In this document: positions 13,462 to 28,179 of the stretch, piece by piece
Layout: every line of letters begins with the position of its first letter
Numbering within the stretch: the stretch's first letter is position 1
Assembly: GCF_015223355.1 (NCBI RefSeq)
Contig: NZ_JADFFK010000001.1
Location: 434,001-498,000, forward strand
Origin: Salipiger mangrovisoli
Lineage (GTDB): Bacteria; Pseudomonadota; Alphaproteobacteria; Rhodobacterales; Rhodobacteraceae
DNA length: 64,000 nucleotides
Reading direction: 5' to 3'
The notes under the pieces: model-generated
The model's input: the letters and a program-made list of their open reading frames with translations, nothing else
Told to the model about the DNA's origin: nothing
The model's database searches: none
Translations under genes and position numbers: made by a program

Positions 13462-13568
13462 GGGGGCGCTGCCCCCTCGCCGCTGCGCGGCTCACCCCCG
13501 GCGTATTTTGAAAGAGAAGAGGGGCAAAGGCGGCCGTGCCCTTGCCCCTCTTCTCTTTCAAAATACGC
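13462..13568. repeat. Intergenic double-hairpin element with long inverted tail
   Basis: First hairpin GGGGGCGCTGCCCCC (13462-13476), then GCCGC-TGC-GCGGC, then CCCCCGGCGTATTTTGAAAG. The tail segment 13501-13530 is repeated as an inverted copy at 13539-13568, with 29 of 30 positions complementary across an 8-base spacer. It lies between the convergent acpP and ThDP-enzyme genes. The same element type recurs at 30569 and 58782. Confidence 0.8.
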
Positions 13569-13616: not shown

Positions 13617-15320
13617 TCAGCCTGCAATGCGCACGTTGAGCAGGGCGCAGCGGCGCTCCTCGCGGATGACCGCGAGCGCGCTGTCGAGGGCCGGGCGGAG
13701 CTCACCCTGGGTCTCGACAGCGCGCGCCCAGGCATTGCTGGCCTCGGCGACCTTGCAGAAGTCGGGACTGGGCGCGAGACCGGTGAGCGGCATCACGTTG
13801 GCGCGGCCCGCCGCGCCCTCGGGGTAGAGCCCGGTGACAGAGGCGCGCACTGCGCCCCATTCGGCGTTGTTGAGGATCACGATGAGGATGGGCAGCGCCA
13901 GCGCCTCGGCGATCTGGTGGCAGGCCACCGGGTTGGCGAACATGTAGCTGCCGTCGCCGAGCGTCGCGACGCAGAGGCGGTCCGGTTCGGCGAGCTGCGC
14001 GCCGAGCGCGGCGGGGAAGGACCAGCCGAGCCCGCCGGAGTGTGGCTCCTGGAACCACGAGCGGTGCGCGCGGCGGGGCAGCGGGCCGAGCATCGTGCCG
14101 AGCTCGGAGAAGACCGTGCTGGGCGCTTCCTGCGCATCCAGCGCCTCGCCGAGGATGCGGCTGACCGCGGGCTTGGTGAGCAGCTCGCCCTGCGGCTGCG
14201 CGGCCTCCGACTGCGCCTTGCGGGCGCGGGCCGTGGTCTCGGCGAGGCGGGCGCGGCGCGGGGCGACGTGATCGCCCTTCGGCAGGTCTTCCATCGCGGC
14301 GATCAGGGCAGGGATCGTGCGGGCGTTTTCGCCCGTGATGCTGAGGTCCGAGCGGAAGTTGCGGACCGGGAAGCGCGAGAAGATCGGGTCGGGGCCCATG
14401 TTGGCGATCTTCGCCTCGGGGCGCGGCGCATGGGCGTCGGGCATCCAGGGGGCGAGGCAGTCGAGGATCAGCACCACGTCGGCCTGCGCCAGCCAGGGGC
14501 CGGGATCGGCGCCGACGTGGCAGGGGTGGTCGGTGGCGATGGCGAGATGCGTCGCCCACCACGAGCAGACCGCGATGCCCCAGTCCTCGGCCCAATCGGC
14601 GAAGGCGGCGAAGCTCTCGGCATCGCCGGCACCGCGCTGCGCGATGATCAGCGGCGCTTCGGCCTCGGCGAGCCAGCGGGCGAGGGTGGCCAGCGCCTCG
14701 GGGTTCGGCGCGGCCTCGGAAGCGGCCATGGAGGGGGCGACGTCCAGCCCCTCGGTCGGCACGGGCTCGCAGAGCACTTCGCGCGGGATCGACAGGTAGA
14801 CCGGGCCCTTGGGGGTGGAGCTGGCGATGGCATGGGCGCGGTCCAGCAGCCCCGGCACCTGCTCGGGGAACTTCAGCTCGTACTCCCACTTCGAGGCCTC
14901 GCGCACCAGGGCCGCCTGGTCTCGCATTTCCTGGCCCCAGCCGATCGGGACGGTGCGGGCGCCGAAGCGGCCCGCCTCGGTCACCGGTGTGCGGCCAGAC
15001 ATGAGGATCATCGGGATATGCTCGCAGGCGGCGTTGATCGCGCCGATCGCGCCGTTGGCGAGCCCGACGTTGGTGTGCAGCATCACCGCCTGCGCCTTGC
15101 CGGTCATCAGGGTGTAGCCATGGGCCATGCCCATCGCGGCGTGCTCATGCGGCATGACCAGCGCCTGCGGCAGATCGATGCCCTCGGCGGCGGCCTGCGC
15201 CAGCCCCTCGATGATCGGCGGGAAGTCGGTGCCGGAGTTGGCGAAGACATAGTCGACGCCAAGCGCCTTCAGCCGGGGGAAGATCGCTCCCCCGGCGGTG
15301 ACGGTCGTTTGGTCTTTCAT
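13617..15320 (-). CDS. ThDP-dependent decarboxylase, benzoylformate-decarboxylase-like
   Basis: 567-residue enzyme of the acetolactate synthase/benzoylformate decarboxylase superfamily. The cofactor-activating glutamate is E59 (MPHEHAAMGMAHGY), and the ThDP/Mg site is GDGSYMF (455-461) with N484-N485. H82 in VMLHTNVG aligns with the active-site His70 of Pseudomonas benzoylformate decarboxylase, while the loop carrying its Ser26 reads NSGTD, so the substrate may differ. It lacks the typical FAD-site features of acetolactate synthase as far as I can see. As the last gene of a ten-gene operon with two importers and an aldehyde dehydrogenase, it most likely decarboxylates a 2-oxo acid to an aldehyde. 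The substrate is inferred, not seen. Confidence 0.8.
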   Translation of the reverse strand: MKDQTTVTAGGAIFPRLKALGVDYVFANSGTDFPPIIEGLAQAAAEGIDLPQALVMPHEHAAMGMAHGYTLMTGKAQAVMLHTNVGLANGAIGAINAACEHIPMILMSGRTPVTEAGRFGARTVPIGWGQEMRDQAALVREASKWEYELKFPEQVPGLLDRAHAIASSTPKGPVYLSIPREVLCEPVPTEGLDVAPSMAASEAAPNPEALATLARWLAEAEAPLIIAQRGAGDAESFAAFADWAEDWGIAVCSWWATHLAIATDHPCHVGADPGPWLAQADVVLILDCLAPWMPDAHAPRPEAKIANMGPDPIFSRFPVRNFRSDLSITGENARTIPALIAAMEDLPKGDHVAPRRARLAETTARARKAQSEAAQPQGELLTKPAVSRILGEALDAQEAPSTVFSELGTMLGPLPRRAHRSWFQEPHSGGLGWSFPAALGAQLAEPDRLCVATLGDGSYMFANPVACHQIAEALALPILIVILNNAEWGAVRASVTGLYPEGAAGRANVMPLTGLAPSPDFCKVAEASNAWARAVETQGELRPALDSALAVIREERRCALLNVRIAG

Positions 15321-15323
15321 TGT

Positions 15324-16682
15324 TCAGCCTCCCAGCAGGGTTGGCAGCCAGAGCGTGAGCACGGGGAAGGCGAGGATCAGCGCGACCCGCACCAGCTCGG
15401 CGCAGAAGAAGGGGGCGACGCCCTTGAAGGTTTCGATCATCGGCGTGTCCTTGGCCAGCGCCGAGATGATGAAGACATTCATCCCCACCGGCGGGGTGAT
15501 CAGCCCCAGCTCGGCGACAATCAAGGCGAGGATGCCGAACCAGACCTTGAGATCCTCGGTGCTCATCCCGAAGCCCGCGCCGTCGGCCGTGGCGTAGAGC
15601 CCGCCGTTCAGCTCGACCAGCATCGGCCAGAAGAAGGGGATGACCAGCAGGATCATCGACATGCTGTCCATCAGGCAGCCGAGCAGGATCAGCGCGACGA
15701 GGATCAGCACCATGACCATCATCGGGGCCATGCCGCTTTCGGCGATCCATTGCGCCGCCTGCTGCGGCAGGCCGATGCGGGACATGAAGATCTTCATCAG
15801 CTCCGCGCCGAGCAGGATGACGTAGATCATCCCCGAGGTGCGGGCCGTGGATTTCAGCGCCACGACGATCTCGGAGAGGCCCACGCGGCGCTTTGCCAGC
15901 CCGTAGACCCAGACCAGGAAGACGCCGACGGCGGCGGCGGGGGTCGGGTTGAAGAAGCCGCCGTAGATGCCGCCCAGCACCAGCCCGAAGATCACCATGA
16001 CCGGCAGCAGGCCGAGCGTGGCGGTGATGAACTCCGAGCGGCTGGCGGCGCCGCCCGCGGGGCCCGCGGCGGGGCGGACGCGGACGTAGATGGCGATGGT
16101 CAGGATGAAGAAAAGCACCGCGAGGATGCCGGGCAGCATGGCCGCGGCAAACATGGTGACGATATTGGCCTCGACGATCACCGCGTAGACGATCAGCACC
16201 ACCGAGGGCGGGATCAGGATGCCCAGCACACCGCCCGCCGAAAGCGCGCCGGTGGCCAGCGCGCCGGAGTAGTTGTAGCGCTTCAGCTCGGGCAGGGCGA
16301 CCTTGCCCATGGTCGAGGCGGTGGCCAGCGACGAGCCGCAGACCGCGCCGAAGCCGGCGCAGCCGGCAATGGCCGCCATGGCGGTGCCGCCGCGCATCCA
16401 GCCGAGCCAGGCGTTGGCGCCGCGGAACAGCGCGTGGCTGAGCCCCGCGACCGTGGCCAGCTCGCCCATCAGCACGAACATCGGCACGACCGAGAGGTCG
16501 TAGATCGAGAACTGCCCGTAGGCGAGCGTCTTCAGCTGGCTCAACAGCAGCATCGGGCCGTTGACCAGCGCGATGCCGACACCGCCGACGAGGATCATCC
16601 CGTAGGCGATGGGAATGCGGATGGCGATCAGCACGATCAGCACGACCAGCGACAGGATTCCGAGGGTGATGGGATCGCTCAT
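15324..16682 (-). CDS. dctM: TRAP transporter large permease, DctM family
   Basis: 452-residue, roughly 12-span membrane subunit of a tripartite ATP-independent periplasmic importer, driven by an ion gradient. Family marks are GFGAVCGSSLATASTMGKVALPE, GILIPPSVVLIVYAV, FFNPTPAAAVGVF and ELGLITPPVGMNVFII. The ATG at 16682 overlaps the dctQ stop (ATGA); the stop is 3 bases before the ThDP-enzyme start. It forms a full TRAP set with the two genes upstream. Confidence 0.95.
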   Translation of the reverse strand: MSDPITLGILSLVVLIVLIAIRIPIAYGMILVGGVGIALVNGPMLLLSQLKTLAYGQFSIYDLSVVPMFVLMGELATVAGLSHALFRGANAWLGWMRGGTAMAAIAGCAGFGAVCGSSLATASTMGKVALPELKRYNYSGALATGALSAGGVLGILIPPSVVLIVYAVIVEANIVTMFAAAMLPGILAVLFFILTIAIYVRVRPAAGPAGGAASRSEFITATLGLLPVMVIFGLVLGGIYGGFFNPTPAAAVGVFLVWVYGLAKRRVGLSEIVVALKSTARTSGMIYVILLGAELMKIFMSRIGLPQQAAQWIAESGMAPMMVMVLILVALILLGCLMDSMSMILLVIPFFWPMLVELNGGLYATADGAGFGMSTEDLKVWFGILALIVAELGLITPPVGMNVFIISALAKDTPMIETFKGVAPFFCAELVRVALILAFPVLTLWLPTLLGG

Positions 16683-17185
16683 GTCCGGACCTCCGACAGG
16701 CTTTCGCGGAAGGTGACGGCGGCGGCGGCGATGAGCAGCGCCAGCGAGACGAGGATCGGCACGAAGGCCCACCAGATCGGCACCTGCAGGATCGTCGTCG
16801 TGTAGTTGTAAGCCTTCTGGTCGAGCATCCCGAGGGACATGCGCCACACCAGGATGCAGGCGAAACCGAAGGCGATCAGCGAGGCGATCGCGCGCAGCAC
16901 CGCCAGCACGGGGCGGGGGGCGTTCGCGGTGAAGATGTCGGCGGTGACGTTGGCGTCGGTCAGCTGGCAATAGGGCAGGAAGGCGAAGACGGCGACGGCC
17001 ACGCCCATCTCGGTCAGCTCGAAATCGCCGGGAAAGGGTTTGAGCACCACGGCGCCGACAACCGAGGCGACGTTGATCAGCACGATCACCAGCAGCAGCG
17101 CGCCGCCCAGCAGCGCCCAGAGGGTGACCAGACGTGCGACCGCAGCGGATACCCCGCTGCGGCCCTGAACTTCTGCGGCGAACAT
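16679..17185 (-). CDS. dctQ: TRAP transporter small permease, DctQ family
   Basis: 168-residue, four-span membrane protein that pairs with DctM. Hydrophobic segments lie at about residues 22-48, 60-75, 92-116 and 135-160. The VPIWWAFVPILVSL block near the C terminus is typical of the family. It overlaps both neighbours by one to four bases, so the three TRAP genes are translationally coupled. Confidence 0.93.
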   Translation of the reverse strand: MFAAEVQGRSGVSAAVARLVTLWALLGGALLLVIVLINVASVVGAVVLKPFPGDFELTEMGVAVAVFAFLPYCQLTDANVTADIFTANAPRPVLAVLRAIASLIAFGFACILVWRMSLGMLDQKAYNYTTTILQVPIWWAFVPILVSLALLIAAAAVTFRESLSEVRT

Positions 17186-18234
17186 CAGTTGCTCATGCTC
17201 GCGTCGGCATTCGCCTTGATCAGCTCGCGCGCCTTGGCGACCATGGCGGTGCCGTCGATGCCCTTGGACGAGACATCCTCGATCCAGCGGTCGACCACCG
17301 GCTCCAGCGCCGTCTCGAAGGCGGCGGTCTCTTCCTCGGTGAGCGTCACATGGGTGTTGCCCGCGTCGGTCGCGACCTTGATGCCGCGCTCATCGATGTC
17401 GCGCCAGATCTTGCCGACCTGCGCCACCCAGTCACGGCCGGACGCATCGCGGAAGGCCTTCTGGATGTCCTCGGGCAGGCCGTCCCAGCGGCCCTTGTTC
17501 ATCGACACCTGGAAAGTGGTGGTGCCGAAGCGGGTCTTGTCCGCGCCCTCGATCTGGTACTGGGTCTGGTCCTGCAGCTTCAGCGCCGGGATGATCTCCC
17601 AGGGGATGAAGGCGCCGTCGACGACCTTCTTCGACAGGGCCTGCGGCAGGTCAGGGACCGGCATCGACACCGGCGAGGCCCCAAGCGCCTCGATCACCCA
17701 GGCACCGGTGCGGGTGGGGATGCGCATCTTCAGACCGGCGAGGTCCTCGGGCTTGCGGATTTCCTTGTCCACGGTGTGGATGGCCTGGCCCGCGTGCACG
17801 TGCAGGAACATCGGCTCCACGCCGGCATAGTCGTCCTTCAGGTACTCGTCGTACATGTCGTACATCGCGAGGTTGGTCGCCACCGGATCGTTGGTGAAGA
17901 CGTTGGGCAGTTCCATCACCTCGGTGCGCGGGAACAGGCCCGGCGTGTATCCGTTCACCGTCCAGATCAGATCGACCACGCCGTCACGGGCCTGGTTGAT
18001 CAGCTCTGGCGGGCGGCCGCCGAGGGTCATCGAGGGGTAGATCTCGATCTTCACCTTGCCGCCGGAGTTCTCTTCGACCGCCTTGGCCCAGGGTTCGAGC
18101 ATCTCGGTCTGGGCCGGGGCCTTCGCGCCAAGGAAGTGGTGCAGCTTGAAGGTGTAGTCCTGGGCCCAGGCGCCGCCGGCGGCGACGCTCAGGGCCAGGA
18201 CCGCAACCGCGGTTTTTGCCAGTTTCAGTTTCAT
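17185..18234 (-). CDS. dctP: TRAP transporter solute-binding protein, DctP family
   Basis: Periplasmic binding protein of the TRAP importer, 349 residues with a signal peptide ending near AGGAWA-QD. The sequence LKMRIPTRTGAWVIEALGA holds the conserved arginine that usually binds the ligand carboxylate, so an organic acid ligand is expected. MNKGRWDGLPEDIQKAF is a further DctP mark. It lies 42 bases downstream of the aldehyde dehydrogenase gene. Confidence 0.93.
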   Translation of the reverse strand: MKLKLAKTAVAVLALSVAAGGAWAQDYTFKLHHFLGAKAPAQTEMLEPWAKAVEENSGGKVKIEIYPSMTLGGRPPELINQARDGVVDLIWTVNGYTPGLFPRTEVMELPNVFTNDPVATNLAMYDMYDEYLKDDYAGVEPMFLHVHAGQAIHTVDKEIRKPEDLAGLKMRIPTRTGAWVIEALGASPVSMPVPDLPQALSKKVVDGAFIPWEIIPALKLQDQTQYQIEGADKTRFGTTTFQVSMNKGRWDGLPEDIQKAFRDASGRDWVAQVGKIWRDIDERGIKVATDAGNTHVTLTEEETAAFETALEPVVDRWIEDVSSKGIDGTAMVAKARELIKANADASMSN

Positions 18235-18276
18235 GGATTTCTCCTCCCGTTTTGAACCGATCCGATCGCTTCCAGG

Positions 18277-19725
18277 TCAGATCGGGTAGTGCAGATCGCC
18301 GTCCTGCGTCGTCATCCAGCGCAGTTCGGTGAACTCGGCGACTCCCCACGTGCCGCCGAAGCGACCGTAGCCTGAATCCTTCACGCCGCCGAAGGGCATT
18401 TGCGCCTCGTCATGCACGGTCGGGCCGTTGACGTGGCAAATACCACTCTCGATGCGCCGGGCGACCGCCATGGCGCGGGCCTGGTCGCGGCCGAAGACCG
18501 CGGCCGACAGGCCGAATTCGCTTTCGTTGGCCACGCGCACCGCCTCGTCGACCGAGCCCACGCGGATGATCGAGGCAACCGGTCCGAAGCTTTCCTCGGA
18601 ATAGAGCCGCATCTGCGGGGTCACCCCATCCAGCGCCGCGGCGTTGAGAATGGTGCCGGTGCCGCCGCCGCCGATCAGCCGCGCGCCCTTCTGCACGGCG
18701 TCCTCGATGAGGTCGCGGATGCGGTCGGCGGCGCCGATGTTCACGAGGCTGCCGAGCGGTGCCTTGCCCTCGCGCGGATCGCCCGCGGTGAGGCTTTCGA
18801 CCTTTTCAGAGAAGGCCGCGACGAAGGCGTCGGCGATGCCGTCCATGACGATGATGCGCTCGGTCGACATGCAGATCTGGCCCTGGTTCATGTAGGCTCC
18901 GAAGCCCGCGGCCGCGACGGCGGCAGGGATGTCGGCGTCATCCAGAACGATGAACGGTGCCTTGCCGCCCAGCTCCAGCAGCGAGGGCTTGAGGTGGCGG
19001 GCCGAGAGTTCCGCGACGATGCGACCGACGCGCGTCGATCCGGTGAAGTTCACCCGGCGCACGGCGGGGTGGGCGATCAGCGTCTCGACCAGTTCCGGCG
19101 CATCCTCGGGGGCGTTCGAGATGGCGTTGACCACGCCCTTCGGCAGGCCCGCTTCGGACACGGCTTCAAGGATCAGCGCATGGGTGCGCGGGCAAAGCTC
19201 CGAGGTCTTCATCACCACGGTGTTGCCGCAGGCCAGCGGCGTGGCGATCGAGCGCACGCCGAGGATCACCGGCGCGTTCCAGGGCGCCATGGCCAGCACC
19301 ACACCCGCCGGCTGGCGCACCGCGTAGGCGGTCGAGCCGGGGCGGTTCGAGGGCACGATCTCGCCCTTGATCTGCGTGGTAAGGCTGGCCGCTTCCAGAA
19401 GCATGTCGGCGGCGAGCATGACGTTGAACCGGGCCCAGGCCTCGGTCGCGCCGATCTCGGCCTTCATCGCGGCGACGATGTCGTCACCGCGCGCCACCAG
19501 CGCCTCGGAGGCCTTGATCAGCAGCTTGCGGCGCTGGCCGGGAGCCACGGCGGCCCACTCGGGGAAGGCCGCGGCGGCGGCATCCACCGCACGGATCGCG
19601 TCGGCCTTGCTGGCGGCGGCGGCGCGGGTGGCCACCTCGCCCGACACGGGGTTTGCGCGTTCGAATTCGCGGCTGTCCTCGGCGGGAACATGTTCGCCGT
19701 CGATAAAGAGGTTGAGGCTATCCAT
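18277..19725 (-). CDS. Aldehyde dehydrogenase, vanillin/salicylaldehyde dehydrogenase-like
   Basis: NAD(P)-dependent oxidation of an aldehyde to the acid. 482 residues with the ALDH fold: MAPWNAPVILGVR, NFTGSTRVGR, catalytic Glu in LLELGGKAPFIVL and catalytic Cys in NQGQICMSTERIIV. The C-terminal region (HVNGPTVHDEAQMPFGGVKDSG, EFTELRWMT) resembles the aromatic-aldehyde subgroup (vanillin, benzaldehyde, salicylaldehyde). It sits between the ABC and TRAP transporter genes in one operon and would consume the product of the ThDP decarboxylase. Confidence 0.9.
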   Translation of the reverse strand: MDSLNLFIDGEHVPAEDSREFERANPVSGEVATRAAAASKADAIRAVDAAAAAFPEWAAVAPGQRRKLLIKASEALVARGDDIVAAMKAEIGATEAWARFNVMLAADMLLEAASLTTQIKGEIVPSNRPGSTAYAVRQPAGVVLAMAPWNAPVILGVRSIATPLACGNTVVMKTSELCPRTHALILEAVSEAGLPKGVVNAISNAPEDAPELVETLIAHPAVRRVNFTGSTRVGRIVAELSARHLKPSLLELGGKAPFIVLDDADIPAAVAAAGFGAYMNQGQICMSTERIIVMDGIADAFVAAFSEKVESLTAGDPREGKAPLGSLVNIGAADRIRDLIEDAVQKGARLIGGGGTGTILNAAALDGVTPQMRLYSEESFGPVASIIRVGSVDEAVRVANESEFGLSAAVFGRDQARAMAVARRIESGICHVNGPTVHDEAQMPFGGVKDSGYGRFGGTWGVAEFTELRWMTTQDGDLHYPI

Positions 19726-19743
19726 GCCTGTCCGTCTCCTTGG

Positions 19744-20470
<727 letters not shown>

Positions 20471-20478
<8 letters not shown>

Positions 20479-21199
20479 CCTCTTCTCCCAGGTAGGCGGC
20501 GACCACATGCGGGTCCGACAGGACTTCGACCGTGGGGCCGTCGGCGATCAGCGTGCCGGAGTTCATCACCGCGCAGCGCGGGCAGAGCGCGCGCACCGCG
20601 TCCATGATGTGCTCGACCATGATGATGGTGATGCCGGTCTGCTCCAGCTCGCGGATCAGCCTGATCCCCTCGTGCAGCTCGGTCGGGTTGAGCCCGGCCA
20701 GCCACTCGTCGAGCAGCAGCAGCTTCGGTGCCGAGGCGAGCGCGCGCGCCAGTTCCAGCCGCTTCTGGTCGATATATGTCAGCTCCGAGGCCTGCTGTCC
20801 GGCGCGGGACGTGAGCCCCACCATGTCGAGGCATTCGGCCACCTGCACCTTCAGCGCGCGGCCCCAGAGCCCCTCCGGGCCGAAGGCGGCGGGGACCATG
20901 ACGTTCTCTTCCAGCGTCAGCGAGGGCAGGATCTTCACCAGCTGGAAGGTCCGCGCCACGCCCGCCTTCGCGATGCGGTGGGGTGCGGAGCCGGTCATGT
21001 CCTTGCCATTGATCAGCAGCGCCCCCTCCGAGGATTTCAGCGCCCCCGAGATCAGGTTCATCAGGGTGGTCTTGCCCGAGCCGTTCGGCCCCAGCAGCCC
21101 CAGCACCTCGCCGCGCCTGACGGTGAGCGACACGCCGTTCACCGCCGTCAGCCCGCCGAAGCGCTTGGTGAGGCCCTGCGTTTCCAGAAGCACGCTCAT
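20471..21199 (-). CDS. livG: Liv-type ABC transporter ATP-binding protein LivG
   Basis: Second ATPase of the importer, 242 residues. Walker A is [13 protein letters not shown], the Q-loop is GVARTFQLVKILPSLTLEENV, and Walker B is LLLLDEWLAGLNPTE, with the switch His in MVEHIMDAV. The signature reads ELTYIDQKRLELARAL in place of LSGGQ; a similar non-canonical signature occurs in a branch of LivG proteins, so it is not damage. It overlaps livF by 8 and livM by 4 bases. Confidence 0.93.
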
Positions 21200-22134
21200 G
21201 CGCTGGCCTCCTTTGCCGGTTTGGTGGCGGAGGTGCCGTTGCCCCGATGGCGGACCTTCTCAATCGCCGCCAGCACGCCGTCGGGCAGGGCGTAGACCAC
21301 CGCCATGAACATCAGCCCCAGCAGGATCGAGAAGTGATCGGGGAAGCGCGCCGAGAGCCACTCGAACAGCAGGAACAGCGGCACCGCGCCGCAGAGCGGA
21401 CCCCAGAGCCTTGTCGCGCCGCCGAGCAGCGCCATGATCACCGTCAGGAAGCTGACCGTCGGGTTGAAGACGATCGAGGGCTCGACATAGACCCAGCGCG
21501 GTGCCTGGATCGCGCCGACCAGCGTGATGATCGTGGCCGAGACGACGAAGAGCACGAGCTTGGTGCGGGCGAGGTTGATGCCGGAATGCGCCGCGACGGT
21601 CTCGTCGTCGCCGATCACCCGCAGCGCGAGGCCGAGGCGGGAGCGCCGGATCCAGGCCGAGAGCACGAGCGTCGCCGCGCCGAGCGCGAGGAGCTGCCAG
21701 TAGATGTGTTTCGCCTCGAGATCGAGGAAGATGTAGCGGCCGAGCGTGCCGGTCACGTTGACCTCGAACCAGGTGATCAGCTGGCGCACAAGTTCCGCCA
21801 AGCCGAAGCTGAAGATCACGAAGTAGATGCCCGCGAGCCGCAGGGTGGAGAGCCCCACCAGCAGCGCCATGGTCGCGCCGATCCCTGCGGCGCAGAGCAG
21901 CACCAGCGGGTAGGGCAGTACCTCGTTCAGCACCGCGACCGTGTAGGCGCCGACGCCGAAGAAGGCGACCGTGGCCAGCGAGATGTAGCGCGTTGGCCCA
22001 GAGAACATCGCCCAGGAGGTGACCAGCGTCACGTAGCCCGCGAGGCCGACCAAGAGCCCGGTGCCGTAGTCGCCGAAGACCATCGGCAGGGCGGCCAGAG
22101 CCGCAAGTGCGGGGATCGCAAGAAGATAGCGCAT
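21196..22134 (-). CDS. livM: Liv-type ABC transporter permease LivM
   Basis: 312-residue integral membrane permease. Family blocks seen are PTRYISLATVAFFGVGAYT, RLAGIYFVIFSFGLAELVRQ, RVIGDDETVAAHSGIN and MALLGGATRLWGPLCGA. I start at the ATG at 22134, 4 bases after the livH stop and preceded by GGAGGCTGATCCG. A 19-residue extension is possible in frame but lacks coding character. It pairs with LivH. Confidence 0.93.
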   Translation of the reverse strand: MRYLLAIPALAALAALPMVFGDYGTGLLVGLAGYVTLVTSWAMFSGPTRYISLATVAFFGVGAYTVAVLNEVLPYPLVLLCAAGIGATMALLVGLSTLRLAGIYFVIFSFGLAELVRQLITWFEVNVTGTLGRYIFLDLEAKHIYWQLLALGAATLVLSAWIRRSRLGLALRVIGDDETVAAHSGINLARTKLVLFVVSATIITLVGAIQAPRWVYVEPSIVFNPTVSFLTVIMALLGGATRLWGPLCGAVPLFLLFEWLSARFPDHFSILLGLMFMAVVYALPDGVLAAIEKVRHRGNGTSATKPAKEASA

Positions 22135-22138
22135 CGGA

Positions 22139-23011
22139 TCAGCCTCCCGCCCTGCCGAAGAGCCCCGTCGGCCGCCAGAGCAGCACGGCAAGGAACATCG
22201 TGTAGGTGGCGGCCATCGTCAGGCCGGGATCGATGAAGGCGGCGACGAAGGTCTCGGCGAGCCCCAGCAGCAGCCCGGCGATCAGCGCGCCGAGGATGTT
22301 GCCGACGCCGCCCATGATCACGACGATCAGCGCCTTCATGGTGAAGACCACGCCGTCTGTCGCCGAGAAGGTCTGGAACATCGAGACCAGCGCGCCTCCG
22401 GCGGCGGCCAGCGCCCCGCCGAGCGCGAAGCCCTGGCGGCCCAGCTTGCCCACGTCGATGCCGACGAGATAGGCCGAGTCCGGGGCCAGCGCCACGGCGC
22501 GCAGCGCGCGGCCCCAGCGGGTGCGGATCAGCACGGCGTAAAGCCCGAAGCCGATGACCAGCGAGACCACGAAGGCGATCAGCCGGTTGGCGGCGATGGT
22601 GGTGCCGAGGATGCCGATGCCCTGGTTGAGATAGCTGTAGGAGGTGAAGTCGCTGCCGAAAGTGACCAGCATCAGCCCCTGCACGACGAAGAGCAGGCCG
22701 AAGGTGGCGAGGATCGTGTCGACCTCGAGCCGGCCTCCGCCGCCCGAACGCTTGATCAGCGGGCGCATCATGACGGTGTGGATGATCCAGCCGAGCGCGT
22801 AGCCCAGCGGCACGACGATCAGCAGCCCCCAGAGCGGGCCGAGGCCCCAGCTGGTGAACATCATGGTCACCGCGAAACAGGCGAGCAGCATGAACTCGCC
22901 ATACGCGAGGTTCATGATCCGGGCGATGCCGTATTGCAGCGACAGCCCCAGCGCCAGAAGCGCGTAGGTGCCGCCGAGCACGAGCCCGAGAAAGAGGGTG
23001 GAAAGAAACAT
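22139..23011 (-). CDS. livH: Liv-type ABC transporter permease LivH
   Basis: 290-residue membrane permease with about eight hydrophobic segments. Marks are GGTYALLALGLSLQYGIARIMNLAYGEFML, ALRAVALAPDSAYLVGIDV and VVIMGGVGNILGALIAGLLLG, all typical of LivH. It follows the binding-protein gene by 68 bases. Confidence 0.94.
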   Translation of the reverse strand: MFLSTLFLGLVLGGTYALLALGLSLQYGIARIMNLAYGEFMLLACFAVTMMFTSWGLGPLWGLLIVVPLGYALGWIIHTVMMRPLIKRSGGGGRLEVDTILATFGLLFVVQGLMLVTFGSDFTSYSYLNQGIGILGTTIAANRLIAFVVSLVIGFGLYAVLIRTRWGRALRAVALAPDSAYLVGIDVGKLGRQGFALGGALAAAGGALVSMFQTFSATDGVVFTMKALIVVIMGGVGNILGALIAGLLLGLAETFVAAFIDPGLTMAATYTMFLAVLLWRPTGLFGRAGG

Positions 23012-23079
23012 CTAGCGTCCCTGCGAGAGGGTTCGGGCGGGGCGGGCACAGGGCCCGCCTCCGCGGATTGACACGTGGA

Positions 23080-24294
23080 TTACCATTCGGGCTTCGGGAT
23101 GACCGGGGCGGATGCTCCGGTCTGGTCCGCCGGGCTGACGGCGACGAAGTGCTCGCCCTGCCACTGGCCGACCCACCAGAGCTTGCGCAGCTGGTTGTCC
23201 TCGAGTTTGACCTCGCCGATCACCGTGTCGAAGCTGCCGGTCGAAAGCTCGGAGGCGAGCGCCTCGTGGTCGAGGCCGACGCGTTTCACCGCCTCTTCGA
23301 GCATCTCCAGCGAGGCGTAGGTGATGGCGCTCGCCCAGCTGTCGGGCGGGGTGCCGATGACCTCGGTGTGCTTGGCGAAATACTCGGCGATCTCGGGGCT
23401 GTCCGCATTGACGCCGCCGATCGACATGACGCCCTCCTGCTTGCCCTCGGCAATCTTGCCGTAGATCGGGAAGGCCCCGCCGACGCCGATGTAGAAGACC
23501 TTGGGGTTGAAGCCCGTGGTCATCGCCTGCTTGGTCACGCCGAAGCTGCCCGGCGGGTAGGAGAAGGCGACGAAGCTGTCGGCACCCGAGCCCTGCACCT
23601 CGTTGAGGATGGCGGCGAAATCGGAGGTGCCGAGCGGGTAGCTCTCGTCGTAGACCAGCTCGAAACCGGCTTCCTCGAAGGCGGGGCGGGCCGCCTTCAC
23701 GAGGTCGATGCCGAAGCCGTCGGCGACCGAGATCATCGCGACCTTGTCGTTGATCGTGCCGGCCTCCTTGGCGGCGGAGAGCGTCTCGACGAGGGCAGTG
23801 GCGTAGTCATGCCCGCCCCCGAGCATCCAGAACGAGCGGTCCCAGCGCTTGGCGAACTCGGGGGCCATGTCGGTCACCGAGGTCACCGCCAGCTGCGGAT
23901 AGCCGAAGCGGTCCATCAGCGGCGCGATGGCGAGGTTGCCGCCGGTGCCCCAGGGCGGCAGGATGAGGTCGACCTTGTCCTGCGTCGCGAGCCGCTCGAT
24001 GGCGCGCACGAGATCCTCGGCGGTCGAGCGGTCGTCGTATTCCACCACCTCGATAGGGCGGCGAGAGCCGTCGGGCATCTCGAGCCCGCCGGCCTCGTTC
24101 ACTTCCTTCACCCAGAGCTCGTAGTTGGGGATTGTGGTGATGCCCGCGCCGGTGGCGTTGGGGCCGGATTTCGACACCGCGTACCCGATGGTGACGGGCT
24201 CTTGCTGGGCTGCGAGCGGCGCGGCCAGCGCCAGCGCCGAGACCATTGCAAGCGGCAGGGCGCGCAGCACAGCGCGCCTGGTGTTCTGTGTCAT
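23080..24294 (-). CDS. Liv-type periplasmic substrate-binding protein
   Basis: First gene of the ten-gene operon, 404 residues with a signal peptide ending near LAAPLAAQ-QE. Two-lobed type I periplasmic fold of the Leu/Ile/Val-binding family (VTIGYAVSKSGPNATGAG, DLILPPWGTGG, VAMISVADGFGIDLVKAA). Members of this family bind amino acids, amides or aromatic acids. The operon partners favour an aromatic or 2-oxo acid. The ligand cannot be read from the sequence by eye. Confidence 0.9.
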   Translation of the reverse strand: MTQNTRRAVLRALPLAMVSALALAAPLAAQQEPVTIGYAVSKSGPNATGAGITTIPNYELWVKEVNEAGGLEMPDGSRRPIEVVEYDDRSTAEDLVRAIERLATQDKVDLILPPWGTGGNLAIAPLMDRFGYPQLAVTSVTDMAPEFAKRWDRSFWMLGGGHDYATALVETLSAAKEAGTINDKVAMISVADGFGIDLVKAARPAFEEAGFELVYDESYPLGTSDFAAILNEVQGSGADSFVAFSYPPGSFGVTKQAMTTGFNPKVFYIGVGGAFPIYGKIAEGKQEGVMSIGGVNADSPEIAEYFAKHTEVIGTPPDSWASAITYASLEMLEEAVKRVGLDHEALASELSTGSFDTVIGEVKLEDNQLRKLWWVGQWQGEHFVAVSPADQTGASAPVIPKPEW

Positions 24295-24391
24295 GTTGTC
24301 CTCCCGGTTGATGCCTTTGCAGCATCGCGTTGCGCCTCAGGCGTCCCTCTCCCCGAGACGTCCTGTGGCGGATGCAGCAGAAGTTATCTGA

Positions 24392-24438
24392 AAAATGCGT
24401 TGATAAAATGCACGTATGAGCGGATGAATTGCACAGAT
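24392..24438. promoter_or_regulatory. Tandem direct repeats, candidate AraC-family operator
   Basis: Three related 13-base units: AAAATGCGTTGAT (24392), AAAATGCACGTAT (24405) and GAATTGCACAGAT (24426). The last two share TGCAC..AT and are 21 bases apart, two helical turns, the spacing typical of AraC-family half-sites. They lie in the only divergent intergenic region of the locus, 98 bases upstream of the operon's first start and 24 bases upstream of araC. Confidence 0.45.
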
Positions 24439-24461
24439 ACGTCCAAAAGCGCGCCCAAATC

Positions 24462-25337
24462 ATGAGCACGATGAAAACTTTCCCCCTGCGGCCTGCGGCC
24501 CATCACGGCATCACCGCACATGAGATCCGCAGCCCGCTGGCCGAGACCACCTATGGGCTGCGGGCCGAGAACGCCTGTCTGTTGGTGCTGCAATCGGGGC
24601 GGGGGCGGGTTCAGAGCGGCGAGCGTGACATGGCGCTGGAAGCGCCGCGATTCGTCTGGCTCGCACCGGGCCGGGATGGCGCGCTGCGCCTGTCACCGGG
24701 CAGTCGCGGCGAGCTGGTGACGCTGACCAAGGGGGCGCTCGCACGTGTGCTCCCCGGGTCCGCCTTCGGCGACGAGTTGAGCCAGGTGCTTGCCGCCGAC
24801 CTGTCGGTACCGCTTGGCGCGCAGCGCGAGCGCGTGGCGCGGCGGCTCGCCGAGCTGCGCGAGGAGCTGACGGAAAGCGCGCCGGGGGTCGAGATCATGG
24901 CCGGGCACATGCTGTCGATGCTGCTGATCCAGCTCTGGCGCGGGGTCAAGGAGGGGCGAGCGCGGCCCGACGTGGCGACAGGCGGGCTGGTGCAGGGCTT
25001 CGTGCAACTGGCCGGGCTGCACCTGCGCGAGCACTGGGAGGTGGGCGATTATGCCCGCGCGCTGGGGGTGTCGCGGGACCGTCTGGCCGGGGCGGTGAGG
25101 CGCGCCACGGGACGCTCGCCGCAGGGTTGGCTGCACGAGGCGCTGCACCGCGAGGCGGCTGAACTGCTGACCAACTCGGGGCTGCAGGTGGCGCAGGTCG
25201 GGTTCCGGCTGGGGTTTTCGGACCCTGCCTATTTCAACAGGTTTTTCAAACGGATGGAGGGCGTTCCTCCGAGCCGGTTCCGGCGGCGGGTGATGAAGCG
25301 CAGCGCGCCGGCAACCTCCTATGCGGCCTGGCCGTGA
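24462..25337 (+). CDS. AraC family transcriptional regulator
   Basis: 291 residues: an N-terminal cupin-like sensing region (LLVLQSGRGRVQSGERDMALEAPRFVWLAPG) and a C-terminal double helix-turn-helix (DYARALGVSRDRLAGAVRRATGRSP and VAQVGFRLGFSDPAYFNRFFKRMEG). I start at the ATG at 24462; a TTG frame from 24429 is also open. It is divergent from the importer/decarboxylase operon and probably activates it in response to the substrate. Confidence 0.9.
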   Translation: MSTMKTFPLRPAAHHGITAHEIRSPLAETTYGLRAENACLLVLQSGRGRVQSGERDMALEAPRFVWLAPGRDGALRLSPGSRGELVTLTKGALARVLPGSAFGDELSQVLAADLSVPLGAQRERVARRLAELREELTESAPGVEIMAGHMLSMLLIQLWRGVKEGRARPDVATGGLVQGFVQLAGLHLREHWEVGDYARALGVSRDRLAGAVRRATGRSPQGWLHEALHREAAELLTNSGLQVAQVGFRLGFSDPAYFNRFFKRMEGVPPSRFRRRVMKRSAPATSYAAWP

Positions 25338-25489: not shown

Positions 25490-26539
25490 TCAGGCCCGCC
25501 GCCGCCGTCCGCCCCGCCGCCCGCCACGGGCCTCGCCGCCGCTCTCCTGGGCCTTGTTCATCGCGATCCAGGCGGTGCCGTGTGGGTCCTGGTTCACAAG
25601 GAAATTCGCGGCGCGTATCGCCTGCATCTCGGCGCCGGGGCCGGCGGTCAACGACCCGAGCCCGAAAAGCCGCACGAAGTCCGCATCCTCCAGCGGCGGC
25701 AGCATCACCCCGGCGGCCTCCAGTTCGGCCTTCTTGGCGGCGATCTTGCTTTGGCTCACCGGCATGGCCACGGGATTCATGATCGCCGAGGTCATCCCGG
25801 CACCGATCGCCATCGGCAGGAAGGCGGTGTTGATCCCGTGCCGGTTCGGCAGGCCGAAGGAGATGTTCGAGGCGCCGCAGGTGGTGTTCACCCCCAGCTC
25901 TTCGCGCAGCCGCCGGACCAGTGCAAAAACCTGCTGCCCGGCGGTGGCCATCGCCCCCACCGGCATGACCAGCGGGTCGACCACGATGTCCTGCGCGGGG
26001 ATGCCGAAATCGGCAGCGCGCTCGACGATCTTGCGCGCCACGGCGAAGCGTATTTCGGGATCTTCCGAAATGCCCGTGTCGTCGTTCGAGATCGCCACCA
26101 CCGGCACGTTGTATTTCTTGACCAGCGGCAACACGCGCTCCAGCCGCTCCTCCTCGCCGGTGACAGAGTTGAGCAGGGGGCGTCCCTTGGCCGCCGCCAG
26201 ACCTGCTTCAAGCGCGCCGGGCACCGAGCTGTCGATGCAGAGCGGCACATCGACCGTCTGCTGCACGAGCTCGATCATCTGCCGCATCAACGGGGGCTCG
26301 GTCACATTCGGATCGGGGTTGGAGTTGTAGACCACGCCCGCGTTCACATCGAGTACCGCGGCACCTGCCGCCACCTGCGCCAGCGCGTCCGCCACGACGG
26401 TGGAGAAGTCTCCCGCCTCCAGTTCCGCCGCCAGCTTCTTGCGTCCGGTGGGATTGATCCGCTCGCCGATCACGCAGAAGGGCTGATCGAAACCGATGAT
26501 CACGGTGCGGGTCTTCGACTCCAGAACGGTGCGGGTCAT
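25490..26539 (-). CDS. Methyltetrahydrofolate:corrinoid methyltransferase (pterin-binding)
   Basis: TIM-barrel pterin-binding protein that moves a methyl group between 5-methyltetrahydrofolate and a corrinoid protein. Marks are VIGERINPTGRKK, AAVLDVNAG, LCIDSSVPGALEAGL, NSVTGEEERLE and NISFGLPNRHGINTAFLPMA. 349 residues; the last 16 form a Gly/Arg tail (GGEARGGRRGGRRRRA) not usual for the family. In Roseobacter-group strains, methionine synthase has been reported as separate pterin-, B12- and homocysteine-binding proteins, and this fits the pterin-binding part. The corrinoid and homocysteine-binding partners are not in the window. Confidence 0.85.
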   Translation of the reverse strand: MTRTVLESKTRTVIIGFDQPFCVIGERINPTGRKKLAAELEAGDFSTVVADALAQVAAGAAVLDVNAGVVYNSNPDPNVTEPPLMRQMIELVQQTVDVPLCIDSSVPGALEAGLAAAKGRPLLNSVTGEEERLERVLPLVKKYNVPVVAISNDDTGISEDPEIRFAVARKIVERAADFGIPAQDIVVDPLVMPVGAMATAGQQVFALVRRLREELGVNTTCGASNISFGLPNRHGINTAFLPMAIGAGMTSAIMNPVAMPVSQSKIAAKKAELEAAGVMLPPLEDADFVRLFGLGSLTAGPGAEMQAIRAANFLVNQDPHGTAWIAMNKAQESGGEARGGRRGGRRRRA

Positions 26540-26566
26540 CGGTGCTTCTCCTTGCGGGTGTGGGCT

Positions 26567-27217
26567 CTATTCCAATCTGGCCAGCAGCGCGGCGAGCGCC
26601 GGGTCGGTGTAATCGGTGACAACGGTCTGCGCCCCGGCGTCCTGAAGCTGGCGCACCGTCAGCCCCGACGAACGGATGCCGACGGTATGCGCGCCCGAGG
26701 CGGCGGCGGCGCGCATGCCCGAGGGGCTGTCCTCGAAGGCGAGGCACTCCCGCGGGGCGACGTCGAAGGCGCGCATGGCGGCGAGATAGGGCTCGGGGTC
26801 GGGCTTGGCGCGGCTGCATTCGTCGCCGATCACCAGCAGCTCGATGCGCGGCCGCAGGCCGATCGCGCGCAGCATGGCCTCGGCATTGACCCGCGGCGCA
26901 TTGGTGACCACGGCAATGCGCCAGCCACGCGCTTCGGCCCGGTCGAGCAGCGCCACGGCGCCCGGCATCGGCGCATGGCCCTCAACGAGCCGGTCGCGGA
27001 ACCGAGCCTCCTTGAGGTCGGAGAGAGCGTGGGCATCCTCTCCGGGGAAGAGTTCGGGGAAACTGTCGAGGTTGTGCCGCCCGTGGATGTCCGAGAGGTA
27101 GCCCGCTTCGGTCAGCTCGCGGCCGCGCTCGGCGTAGAGGCCGGCGAAGACCTCGAAATGCAGCGGGTCCGAATGGAGGAGTGTGCCGTCGAGATCGAAG
27201 AGGAGTGCCTTGATCAT
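26567..27217 (-). CDS. HAD-superfamily phosphatase (beta-phosphoglucomutase/Gph-like)
   Basis: 216-residue Mg-dependent phosphatase. Motif I is LLFDLDGTLLHSD, with the cap domain after it. Motif II is VVTNAPRVNAEAML, motif III the lysine in SRAKPDPEPYL, and motif IV FEDSPSGMRAAAASG. The C1-type cap places it with phosphoglycolate phosphatase and beta-phosphoglucomutase relatives. It lies between the MTHFR and methyltransferase genes with short gaps, so it belongs to that transcription unit. The substrate is unknown. Confidence 0.85.
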   Translation of the reverse strand: MIKALLFDLDGTLLHSDPLHFEVFAGLYAERGRELTEAGYLSDIHGRHNLDSFPELFPGEDAHALSDLKEARFRDRLVEGHAPMPGAVALLDRAEARGWRIAVVTNAPRVNAEAMLRAIGLRPRIELLVIGDECSRAKPDPEPYLAAMRAFDVAPRECLAFEDSPSGMRAAAASGAHTVGIRSSGLTVRQLQDAGAQTVVTDYTDPALAALLARLE

Positions 27218-27258
27218 GCCTGTCCCTTGCGCGTTGGTTGCCTTGACGGACCGGCCCC

Positions 27259-28179
27259 TCAGACGGCCCGCGAGGCCGGCTGCGCGGCGGCGCCGCCATG
27301 TCGGGCGGCCCAGTCCGTCGCCGCAGGGATGCCCCCGAGCGGGAAGAGATGCAACCGCGCGATGGGGAGATCTGGCTCGGCGGCGCAGGCATGGGCGATC
27401 TCGGCGACAAACTCGGTGGGCTCATAGGGCAGCATCAGCTTGCTCACGTCGCGGGCGCGCTTTTGCAGCACCTTGAGCGAGGGCCCGACGCCGCAGGTCA
27501 CGGCAAAGCGGATCAGCGTTTGCAGCTTCGCCGGTCCGGCGATGCCAAGGTGCACGGGCAGGGTGATCCCCTCGGTCCGCAGGCGGCGGGCCCATGCGAG
27601 CACCGGCTCCGCGTCGAAGGCGAATTGCGTGACCAGTGCCATCTCTGCGTCGCTGCGCTCGGAGAAGGCCTGCTTCCAGTGCAGCGCCTGCATCACCGCG
27701 CGATCGGAGCCGTCGGGATCGATGTCGCGGTTGCCCTCGGGGTGGCCGGCCACGTGCAGCCGGGTGAAGCCGGCGTGGTCGAAGAGGCCGGTGTCGAGCA
27801 GCTGCATCGAGGAGTGGAAGTCGACGCGCGCTTCGGCAATTCCCCCGGCGAGGATCAGTCCCTGATGCACCCCCGCCTCGCCCCGGTAGCGGGCGATCCA
27901 GTCACGCAGCGTGGCGGCATCGGGGATTGCCCGTGCCGGAAAGTGCGGCATGACGCTGAAGCCGTCCTTGGCAAGGCGCGCGGCGGTGGCCACCATGTGC
28001 TCGATTGGCGTGCCGTCGATATGGGCGATGTAGACGCGCGTGCCCTCGGGCAGCAGGGCGCGGAAATCGGTGATCTGCGCGGCGGTGCGCGGCGTTACCT
28101 CGATCGAATAGCCCCCGAGCGCCGAGGGCGGAAGATGCGGTGCGGCGGCGCGCCTGCGCCGGAAGGTCAGCAGCTTCAT
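27259..28179 (-). CDS. Methylenetetrahydrofolate reductase family protein
   Basis: 306-residue TIM-barrel protein of the MTHFR family, giving 5-methyltetrahydrofolate for methyl transfer. Recognisable blocks are [51 protein letters not shown] and [15 protein letters not shown] start at the ATG at 28179, preceded by GGGAAAGGACCCGG; the frame is open further but with no coding sense. It follows the virulence-factor family gene by 23 bases and belongs with the methyltransferase downstream. Confidence 0.87.

What the first reader, a model, noticed from the sequence alone, without database searches (positions are those of the whole stretch)
13617..25337. Ten-gene operon joining ABC and TRAP importers to a ThDP decarboxylase and aromatic-type ALDH
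Seen: ten leftward genes with short gaps or overlaps encode livK-H-M-G-F, an aldehyde dehydrogenase, dctP-Q-M and a ThDP enzyme, with a divergent AraC gene. Two complete importers of unlike energy source in one operon is unusual. Known: ThDP enzymes with the H82-type histidine include benzoylformate decarboxylase, and the ALDH resembles vanillin/salicylaldehyde dehydrogenases. Inference: uptake of an aromatic 2-oxo acid (or both it and a precursor), decarboxylation to aldehyde, oxidation to the acid. The pathway is not one I recognise as described.
Basis: partly seen in the sequence, partly recalled or inferred. Interest (0 to 1): 0.72.

Follow-up and report, generated by a model that had tools for sequence, protein, structure and literature searches.

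The report
Aromatic keto-acid uptake and breakdown operon
A marine-type bacterium carries one gene block that probably imports aromatic keto-acids of the kind released from lignin and trims them to simple aromatic acids, using a little-known thiamine enzyme family in place of the textbook one.

Summary
The ten-gene block is real: livK-H-M-G-F, ALDH, dctP-Q-M and a ThDP enzyme on the minus strand, junctions of -8 to 68 nt, plus a divergent AraC gene. The ThDP enzyme belongs to NCBIfam NF006203 (PRK08327, no named function). It is not acetolactate synthase or oxalyl-CoA decarboxylase: in trees its family falls with benzoylformate decarboxylase (BFD), and the BFD His70 position is His in 48 of 48 aligned proteins. 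By family score it is nevertheless not a BFD. The TRAP binding protein is TarP-like: 17 of the 18 best PDB fold rows are titled TarP or aromatic-acid binders (one title was cut off). Relatives elsewhere sit beside mandelate dehydrogenase-like, arylmalonate decarboxylase, 2,4'-dihydroxyacetophenone dioxygenase or pca genes, though many show none of these. Best reading: uptake of an aroylformate, decarboxylation to the benzaldehyde, oxidation to the benzoate, then PobA/Pca (pobA and pcaH lie elsewhere in this genome). New is a second, non-BFD enzyme family in a recurrent alphaproteobacterial architecture. No activity or ligand was measured.

The parts
13617..15320 (-). ThDP-dependent enzyme, NCBIfam NF006203/PRK08327, 567 aa; probable aroylformate decarboxylase
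   Evidence: NF006203 658 bits, cut-off 456; tree and motif alignment; AF2 model pLDDT 89.8, Foldseek
15324..16685 (-). dctM, TRAP large permease (start 16682 or 16685)
   Evidence: PF06808
16679..17185 (-). dctQ, TRAP small permease
   Evidence: PF04290
17185..18234 (-). dctP, TarP-like TRAP solute-binding protein, probably for aromatic acids
   Evidence: PF03480; phmmer best 7nr2, 7nsw, 7nrr; AF2 pLDDT 90.4; Foldseek rows 1-18: 17 titled TarP or aromatic-acid SBP, one (5im2) title cut off
18277..19725 (-). aldehyde dehydrogenase, salicylaldehyde/vanillin dehydrogenase type
   Evidence: PF00171; best PDB 6qhn 617 bits, 9ihb 591 bits
19744..20508 (-). livF-like ABC ATPase (start 20478 or 20508)
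   Evidence: PF00005; best NCBIfam model LivF, 255 bits, below its cut-off 441
20471..21199 (-). livG-like ABC ATPase
   Evidence: PF00005, PF12399
21196..22134 (-). livM-like permease (start 22134 or 22191)
   Evidence: PF02653
22139..23011 (-). livH-like permease
   Evidence: PF02653
23080..24294 (-). livK-like solute-binding protein, ligand unknown; GGGAGGA before the ATG at 24294
   Evidence: PF13458; sequence
24409..24434 (.). putative AraC operator: TGCAC at 24409 and TGCAC at 24430, 21 bp apart. In the five aligned gaps the first half-site is TGCAC in 5 of 5; the second is TGNAC (TGCAC in the window and L012, TGTAC in L009 and L010, TGGAC in L013)
24462..25337 (+). divergent AraC-family regulator
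   Evidence: PF12833
13501..13568 (.). 31-nt inverted repeat with 6 nt between the arms, between the convergent ThDP and acpP ends; candidate operon terminator
   Evidence: arm belongs to a genome-wide repeat family

Best explanation
It is a catabolic operon for aryl-C2 keto-acids. The TarP-like TRAP system, and perhaps also the Liv-type ABC system, imports an aroylformate, most likely 4-hydroxybenzoylformate or a ring-substituted relative. The ThDP enzyme removes CO2 to give the benzaldehyde, the ALDH oxidises that to the benzoate, and PobA and the protocatechuate 3,4-dioxygenase encoded elsewhere in the genome take it on. The AraC protein probably senses the substrate and acts on the TGCAC/TGNAC repeat. 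Shown here: gene content, order and recurrence; family placement of each protein; His at the BFD His70 position; TarP-like fold of DctP; aryl-C2 genes beside some relatives; pobA and pcaH in the genome. Inferred: substrate, reaction, co-transcription, regulation.
For: ThDP: NF006203 at 658 bits. In a tree of 22 relatives and 6 references, the relatives and BFD form one side of a branch with 96/94 support, and 99/95, 99/99 and 98/94 in three rebuilds with rows dropped. At the BFD His70 position the window protein and BFD have His, while IlvI, Oxc, Gcl, PoxB and AruI do not; it is His in 48 of 48 aligned proteins, window included. The two best Foldseek entries are titled 4-hydroxybenzoylformate decarboxylases, 6qsi and 7orx. 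DctP: of Foldseek rows 1-18 (36-39% identity, E 2.4e-34 or better), 17 are TarP_Sse, TarP_Csal or a marine SBP titled as specific for aromatic acids; then a drop to 3.3e-28. ALDH: salicylaldehyde and vanillin dehydrogenases. Context: an FMN enzyme whose best PDB match is (S)-mandelate dehydrogenase lies directly after ThDP in L063, L075 and L044 and nearby in L030, L034, L058 and L061; Ponticoccus L095 has an alpha-hydroxy acid oxidase, a mandelate-racemase-superfamily gene, an arylmalonate decarboxylase, ALDH and ThDP; DAD in L083, L099, L102 and 5 of 24 order-sample loci, 336 bits to crystallised DAD 4p9g; Chelatococcus L094 pca genes, ALDH, dctPQM and ThDP in one direction. Control: TRAP/TTT permease 13 of 24 vs 0 of 40, ALDH 8 of 24 vs 0 of 40. 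Own genome: pobA and pcaH over cut-off.
Against: No assay. NF006203 members Klebsiella L100, Diaphorobacter L101 and Thermomicrobium L098 pass the same cut-off without aromatic-named genes in the fetched stretches, so family membership alone does not fix the function. The BFD His281 region has Trp292 instead (gapped there). Other ThDP enzymes score within about three orders of magnitude in Foldseek. Tree branches are long and the tool warned of it. Ring-cleavage and mandelate markers were not significantly enriched: 6 of 24 vs 3 of 40, p 0.06. 37 of 80 relatives and 12 of 24 order-sample loci had none of TarP-type DctP, ALDH, LivK, MDH or DAD. The mandelate-dehydrogenase-like protein also scores for L-lactate dehydrogenase, 275 bits, below cut-off 376; in L063 the TRAP SBP beside it is only 28% identical to the window DctP. 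The window operon has no mandelate dehydrogenase or DAD, and no DAD match was found in the genome. R. palustris TarP itself (7nqg) is only row 24, 24% identity.
Confidence: 0.65

Rival explanations
1. The ThDP enzyme is a carbon-carbon lyase acting on aryl alpha-hydroxyketones or 1,2-diketones (benzaldehyde-lyase-like), releasing a benzaldehyde that the ALDH oxidises.
For: DAD, which cleaves an aryl alpha-hydroxyketone (PMC4219425, passages), is a neighbour in L083, L099, L102 and 5 of 24 order-sample loci; invariant W292, E425 and H427 suggest an active site unlike BFD.
Against: TarP-type importers are known for carboxylates; mandelate-type neighbours of other relatives point to an aroylformate; His at the BFD His70 position.
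Confidence: 0.12
2. The enzyme decarboxylates arylpyruvates (phenylpyruvate, 4-hydroxyphenylpyruvate) to arylacetaldehydes, which are oxidised to arylacetates.
For: R. palustris TarP also binds 4-HPP, Kd 42 nM (PMC3610893, passage). Among neighbours scanned, one dioxygenase and one hydrolase match HpaD/HpaG models below cut-off.
Against: The ALDH matches salicylaldehyde and vanillin dehydrogenases at 617 and 591 bits, while phenylacetaldehyde dehydrogenase models give 287 and 283 bits, cut-offs 800 and 850 (different programs, so only a rough comparison). Named neighbours are mandelate- or benzoate-type; no dedicated search for phenylacetate genes was made.
Confidence: 0.1
3. The enzyme is an acetolactate-synthase-like or other non-aromatic 2-oxo acid enzyme (for example for sulfopyruvate), and the operon is not aromatic.
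For: One PLSDB record names a 42% homologue acetolactate synthase (H26); NF006203 spans distant hosts.
Against: Trees separate it from IlvI, Oxc, Gcl, PoxB and AruI; DctP and ALDH are of aromatic types.
Confidence: 0.06
4. The two importers serve different substrates: TRAP takes the keto-acid, ABC takes a precursor or another aromatic, so the block is two fused modules. This is compatible with the best explanation.
For: Of 33 relatives with TarP-type dctP, 23 have no LivK match in the fetched stretch; L083 and L099 have liv, ALDH and ThDP without TRAP in the stretch; LivK has only weak PDB matches.
Against: Both importers recur with the ThDP gene in 10 of 80, 4 of 24 and 1 of 6 loci, in different gene orders.
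Confidence: 0.45

Closest known systems
Mandelate pathway (MdlABCD, Pseudomonas putida; recalled)
   Same: ThDP decarboxylation of an aroylformate followed by ALDH; some relatives carry mandelate dehydrogenase-like and racemase-superfamily genes
   Different: ThDP enzyme is a separate family (BFD model 155 bits, cut-off 493); no dehydrogenase or racemase in the window operon; two importers
4-hydroxybenzoylformate pathway of Rhodococcus jostii RHA1 and P. fluorescens Pf-5 (7orx, 6qsi; PMC9811514, passages)
   Same: Same inferred chemistry, to 4-hydroxybenzaldehyde or vanillin
   Different: ThDP enzyme only 22-24% identical in the fold alignment and outside the BFD family
bzf cluster of Pseudomonas sp. 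LLC-1 (PMC7760541, passages)
   Same: Decarboxylase, benzaldehyde/vanillin dehydrogenase, transporter and regulator in one cluster
   Different: MFS transporter and porin instead of TRAP and ABC; enzyme close to MdlC
TarPQM and CouPSTU of Rhodopseudomonas palustris (PMC3610893, passages)
   Same: A TRAP and an ABC importer for aromatic acids in one catabolic gene cluster
   Different: There for phenylpropenoids and the non-beta-oxidation route; whether one transcript was not seen

Membership tests
NCBIfam NF006203 (PRK08327 thiamine pyrophosphate-requiring protein) | Score over curated cut-off | tested here: met
   658.5 bits, cut-off 456
Benzoylformate decarboxylase (NF005485/PRK07092) | Score over curated cut-off | tested here: not met
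   155.5 bits, cut-off 493; a BFD, L097, scores 802
Benzoylformate decarboxylase (NF005485/PRK07092) | Catalytic His70 position | tested here: met
   H82, 48 of 48; residue role recalled
Benzoylformate decarboxylase (NF005485/PRK07092) | Ser26 and His281 positions | tested here: not met
   Thr31, and Trp292 in the His281 region, where the alignment is gapped
Benzoylformate decarboxylase (NF005485/PRK07092) | Decarboxylates benzoylformate | not testable with these tools
   needs assay
Acetolactate synthase / oxalyl-CoA decarboxylase | Groups with them in a tree | tested here: not met
   Opposite side of a branch with 96/94 to 99/99 support, long branches; one reference of each
TarP-type aromatic TRAP transporters | SBP nearest in sequence and fold to TarP proteins | tested here: met
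TarP-type aromatic TRAP transporters | Binds aromatic acids | not testable with these tools
   needs ligand screen
Mandelate pathway operon | Mandelate dehydrogenase and racemase in the operon | tested here: not met
   Absent from the window operon. Own-genome FMN hits: L090 passes the L-lactate dehydrogenase cut-off, L089 is undecided, so an unlinked mandelate dehydrogenase is not excluded
Liv-type ABC importer | SBP, two BPD_transp_2 permeases, two ATPases | tested here: met

The most novel reading that the evidence does not exclude
The alphaproteobacterial NF006203 enzymes are a second, independent family of aryl-C2-processing ThDP enzymes that act as carbon-carbon lyases, or as broad decarboxylase/lyases, on lignin-type aryl ketones and keto-acids. 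Together with TarP-type uptake, DAD and ALDH they would form an unrecognised aryl-C2 funnel in marine bacteria.
Probability: 0.15. Interest if true: 0.72.

Novelty: new variant of a known kind. Interest (0 to 1): 0.5.

Why it matters
PMC9811514 says the 4-hydroxybenzoylformate pathway of R. [quoted passage not shown] If these NF006203 enzymes do this chemistry, the route is wider: the family passes its cut-off in 23 of 196 sampled genomes of this order, and a member in Sagittula stellata lies near an alpha-hydroxy acid oxidase and an ALDH. It would give a function to a family that NCBIfam leaves without one and would link aryl-C2 lignin fragments to marine carbon turnover. One purified enzyme and one binding protein suffice for a direct test.

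Tried and rejected
Acetolactate synthase and oxalyl-CoA decarboxylase identity: tested, rejected. Classical BFD in 190 genomes of the class: 0 found, but the controls were silent too, so nothing is concluded. Enrichment of ring-cleavage and mandelate markers near the ThDP gene: not significant in the order sample (6 of 24 vs 3 of 40, p 0.06). A mandelate dehydrogenase in the own genome: hits at 41% and 35%, one an L-lactate dehydrogenase over cut-off, one undecided; not claimed. Sigma-70 promoters: none found by the scan. Literature: searches gave no paper on this operon or on PRK08327, judged from the titles and abstract beginnings listed (25 of 59, 30 of 244).

Limits of the counts. The 40 control stretches were placed by me at round positions on contigs of the same genomes, not by a random generator; one held a dctP match at 27% and one a livG match. 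Related genomes are not independent. Of the 24 order-sample loci, 22 pass the 38% ThDP identity threshold; the two others are second copies in G152 and G141. Of nine NF006203-type plasmid stretches fetched, six entered the count and the three distant ones (L098, L100, L101) were left out. Stretches L184-L186 were fetched but not analysed.
Full report
Observation. The window holds ten minus-strand genes from 24294 down to 13617 and a divergent AraC gene. Pfam confirms an SBP, two permeases and two ATPases of a Liv-type ABC importer, an aldehyde dehydrogenase, a three-part TRAP importer and a ThDP enzyme, and the AraC type. Junctions run from -8 to +68 nt. The block is flanked by a small acyl-carrier-protein-like gene in convergent orientation (read from the ORF list) and, beyond AraC, by a methyltetrahydrofolate:corrinoid methyltransferase gene. 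A 31-nt inverted repeat lies between the two convergent ends. In the AraC/livK gap, TGCAC at 24409 is followed 21 bp on by TGCAC at 24430; across the window and the four relatives with the same operon the first half-site is unchanged in 5 of 5 and the second reads TGNAC. Two of those relatives are one species.

Recurrence. A scan of genome contigs found 292 stretches encoding relatives, of which the best 80 were kept. The full ten genes plus AraC occur in 4 of 80 (L009, L010, L012, L013). My gene caller put the ThDP gene of 75 of 80 loci in one cluster; tblastn found it in 80 of 80. With stricter thresholds TarP-type dctP occurs in 33 of 80, the ALDH in 19, LivK in 11 and both importers in 10, in differing gene orders. 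In a sample drawn over the order, 23 of 196 genomes, the window's included, carry NF006203; none of the three other genomes listed there as same genus does. Around the 24 other loci I found a TRAP/TTT permease in 13, ALDH in 8, LivK in 7 and DAD in 5, against 0 of 40 control stretches for each (one-sided Fisher p 1.9e-7, 1.7e-4, 5.6e-4, 5.6e-3). Related genomes make these p values optimistic. Ring-cleavage and mandelate markers together were 6 of 24 vs 3 of 40 (p 0.06). By the stricter count 12 of 24 order loci and 37 of 80 relatives showed none of TarP-type DctP, ALDH, LivK, MDH or DAD.

The ThDP enzyme. It scores 658 bits for NF006203, 155 for BFD and 123 for acetolactate synthase. In a tree of 22 relatives (NF006203 scored directly for five of them: the window protein and L093, L098, L100, L101) and six references, the relatives are one clade (100/97), on the same side as BFD (96/94) and apart from IlvI, Oxc, Gcl, PoxB and AruI. 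Three rebuilds with rows dropped gave 99/95, 99/99 and 98/94. Branches are long, so this is support, not proof. His82 aligns with BFD His70, Glu59 with the cofactor-activating Glu and Thr31 with Ser26; the BFD His281 region carries Trp292 (residue roles recalled). T31, H58, E59, H82, W292, E425 and H427 are invariant in 48 of 48 aligned proteins. The AlphaFold2 model (pLDDT 89.8) has as its two best PDB entries the 4-hydroxybenzoylformate decarboxylases of P. fluorescens Pf-5 and R. jostii RHA1, but glyoxylate carboligase, 2-hydroxyacyl-CoA lyase and AHAS follow closely.

The importers and ALDH. For DctP (AF2 pLDDT 90.4) Foldseek rows 1-18 are chains of four proteins: TarP_Sse and TarP_Csal (with coumarate, ferulate, cinnamate, caffeate or open), a marine metagenome SBP titled as specific for aromatic acids, and Rfer_2570, whose title was cut off. 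Identity is 36-39%, followed by a clear drop. R. palustris TarP comes at row 24 with 24% identity. LivK is undetermined. The ALDH is closest to salicylaldehyde dehydrogenase 6qhn (617 bits) and vanillin dehydrogenase 9ihb (591 bits).

Neighbourhoods of relatives. Bradyrhizobium L063 reads ALDH, a MarR-like regulator, a TRAP importer of another kind (SBP 28% identical), ThDP, and an FMN enzyme whose best PDB match is (S)-mandelate dehydrogenase. By clustering, that FMN enzyme occurs in 7 of 80 loci; by the stricter tblastn cut, in 4 of 80. Ponticoccus L095 adds a mandelate-racemase-superfamily gene and an arylmalonate decarboxylase; NCBIfam puts the former nearest to sugar-acid dehydratases, below their cut-offs, so racemase activity is not claimed. 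Ensifer L099 and Sulfitobacter L102 carry liv, ALDH, SDR, ThDP and a DAD-family gene; the L099 protein matches crystallised DAD at 336 bits. DAD gives 4-hydroxybenzoate and formate (PMC4219425, passages), and a DAD-like gene is the most strongly induced gene of Novosphingobium MBES04 in a lignin-response study (PMC10866074, abstract and passages). Chelatococcus L094 runs pca genes, ALDH, dctPQM and ThDP in one direction; Sagittula stellata L093 has an alpha-hydroxy acid oxidase and an ALDH nearby. Against this, the Klebsiella, Diaphorobacter and Thermomicrobium members have no aromatic-named genes in the stretches fetched.

Mechanism. Uptake of an aroylformate, decarboxylation on ThDP, oxidation of the aldehyde, then PobA and protocatechuate 3,4-dioxygenase: pobA and pcaH both pass their cut-offs on contig C66 of this genome; pcaG was not sought by itself. 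The 4-hydroxy ring pattern is inferred from PobA, Pca and DAD neighbours and is the least certain step.

Known work. The chemistry is known from R. jostii RHA1 (PMC9811514, passages; its source, Wei et al. 2019, seen only as a reference entry) and from the Pseudomonas bzf cluster (PMC7760541, passages). TRAP and ABC uptake of the same aromatics is known in R. palustris (PMC3610893, passages). No paper on this enzyme family or combined operon turned up in the searches listed under Tried and rejected. Verdict: a well-supported new variant of a known kind, moderately interesting, with activity untested.

Noticed in passing
window 13501-13568 and 31 further sites in the genome: The arm of the inverted repeat belongs to a repeat family: 33 sites in all with up to 3 mismatches, 0 for the reversed control pattern; possibly a recurrent terminator-like element.
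   Followed up: partly
window 25490-28179: A methyltetrahydrofolate:corrinoid methyltransferase, a HAD hydrolase and a gene without a family match above cut-off lie on the minus strand beyond the AraC gene.
   Followed up: no
L030: A record titled Enemella evansiae (an actinomycete) carries a racemase-superfamily gene 98.7% identical to the Ponticoccus plasmid copy and a near-identical ThDP gene: mislabelled or contaminated record, or recent transfer.
   Followed up: no
L027:11755-12867 and eight other loci: A MetE-like methyltransferase (NF005085 over cut-off in L027) lies near the ThDP gene in 9 of 80 relatives; its role in an aromatic setting is unclear.
   Followed up: no
19 loci among L059-L088, mostly Thalassospira: A regulator nearest to the PcaR/PcaU/PobR model (L062 copy 165 bits, cut-off 285) clusters in 19 loci, beside the ThDP gene on the other strand where the gene order was printed; 11 of these 19 loci also hold pobA further away.
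   Followed up: partly
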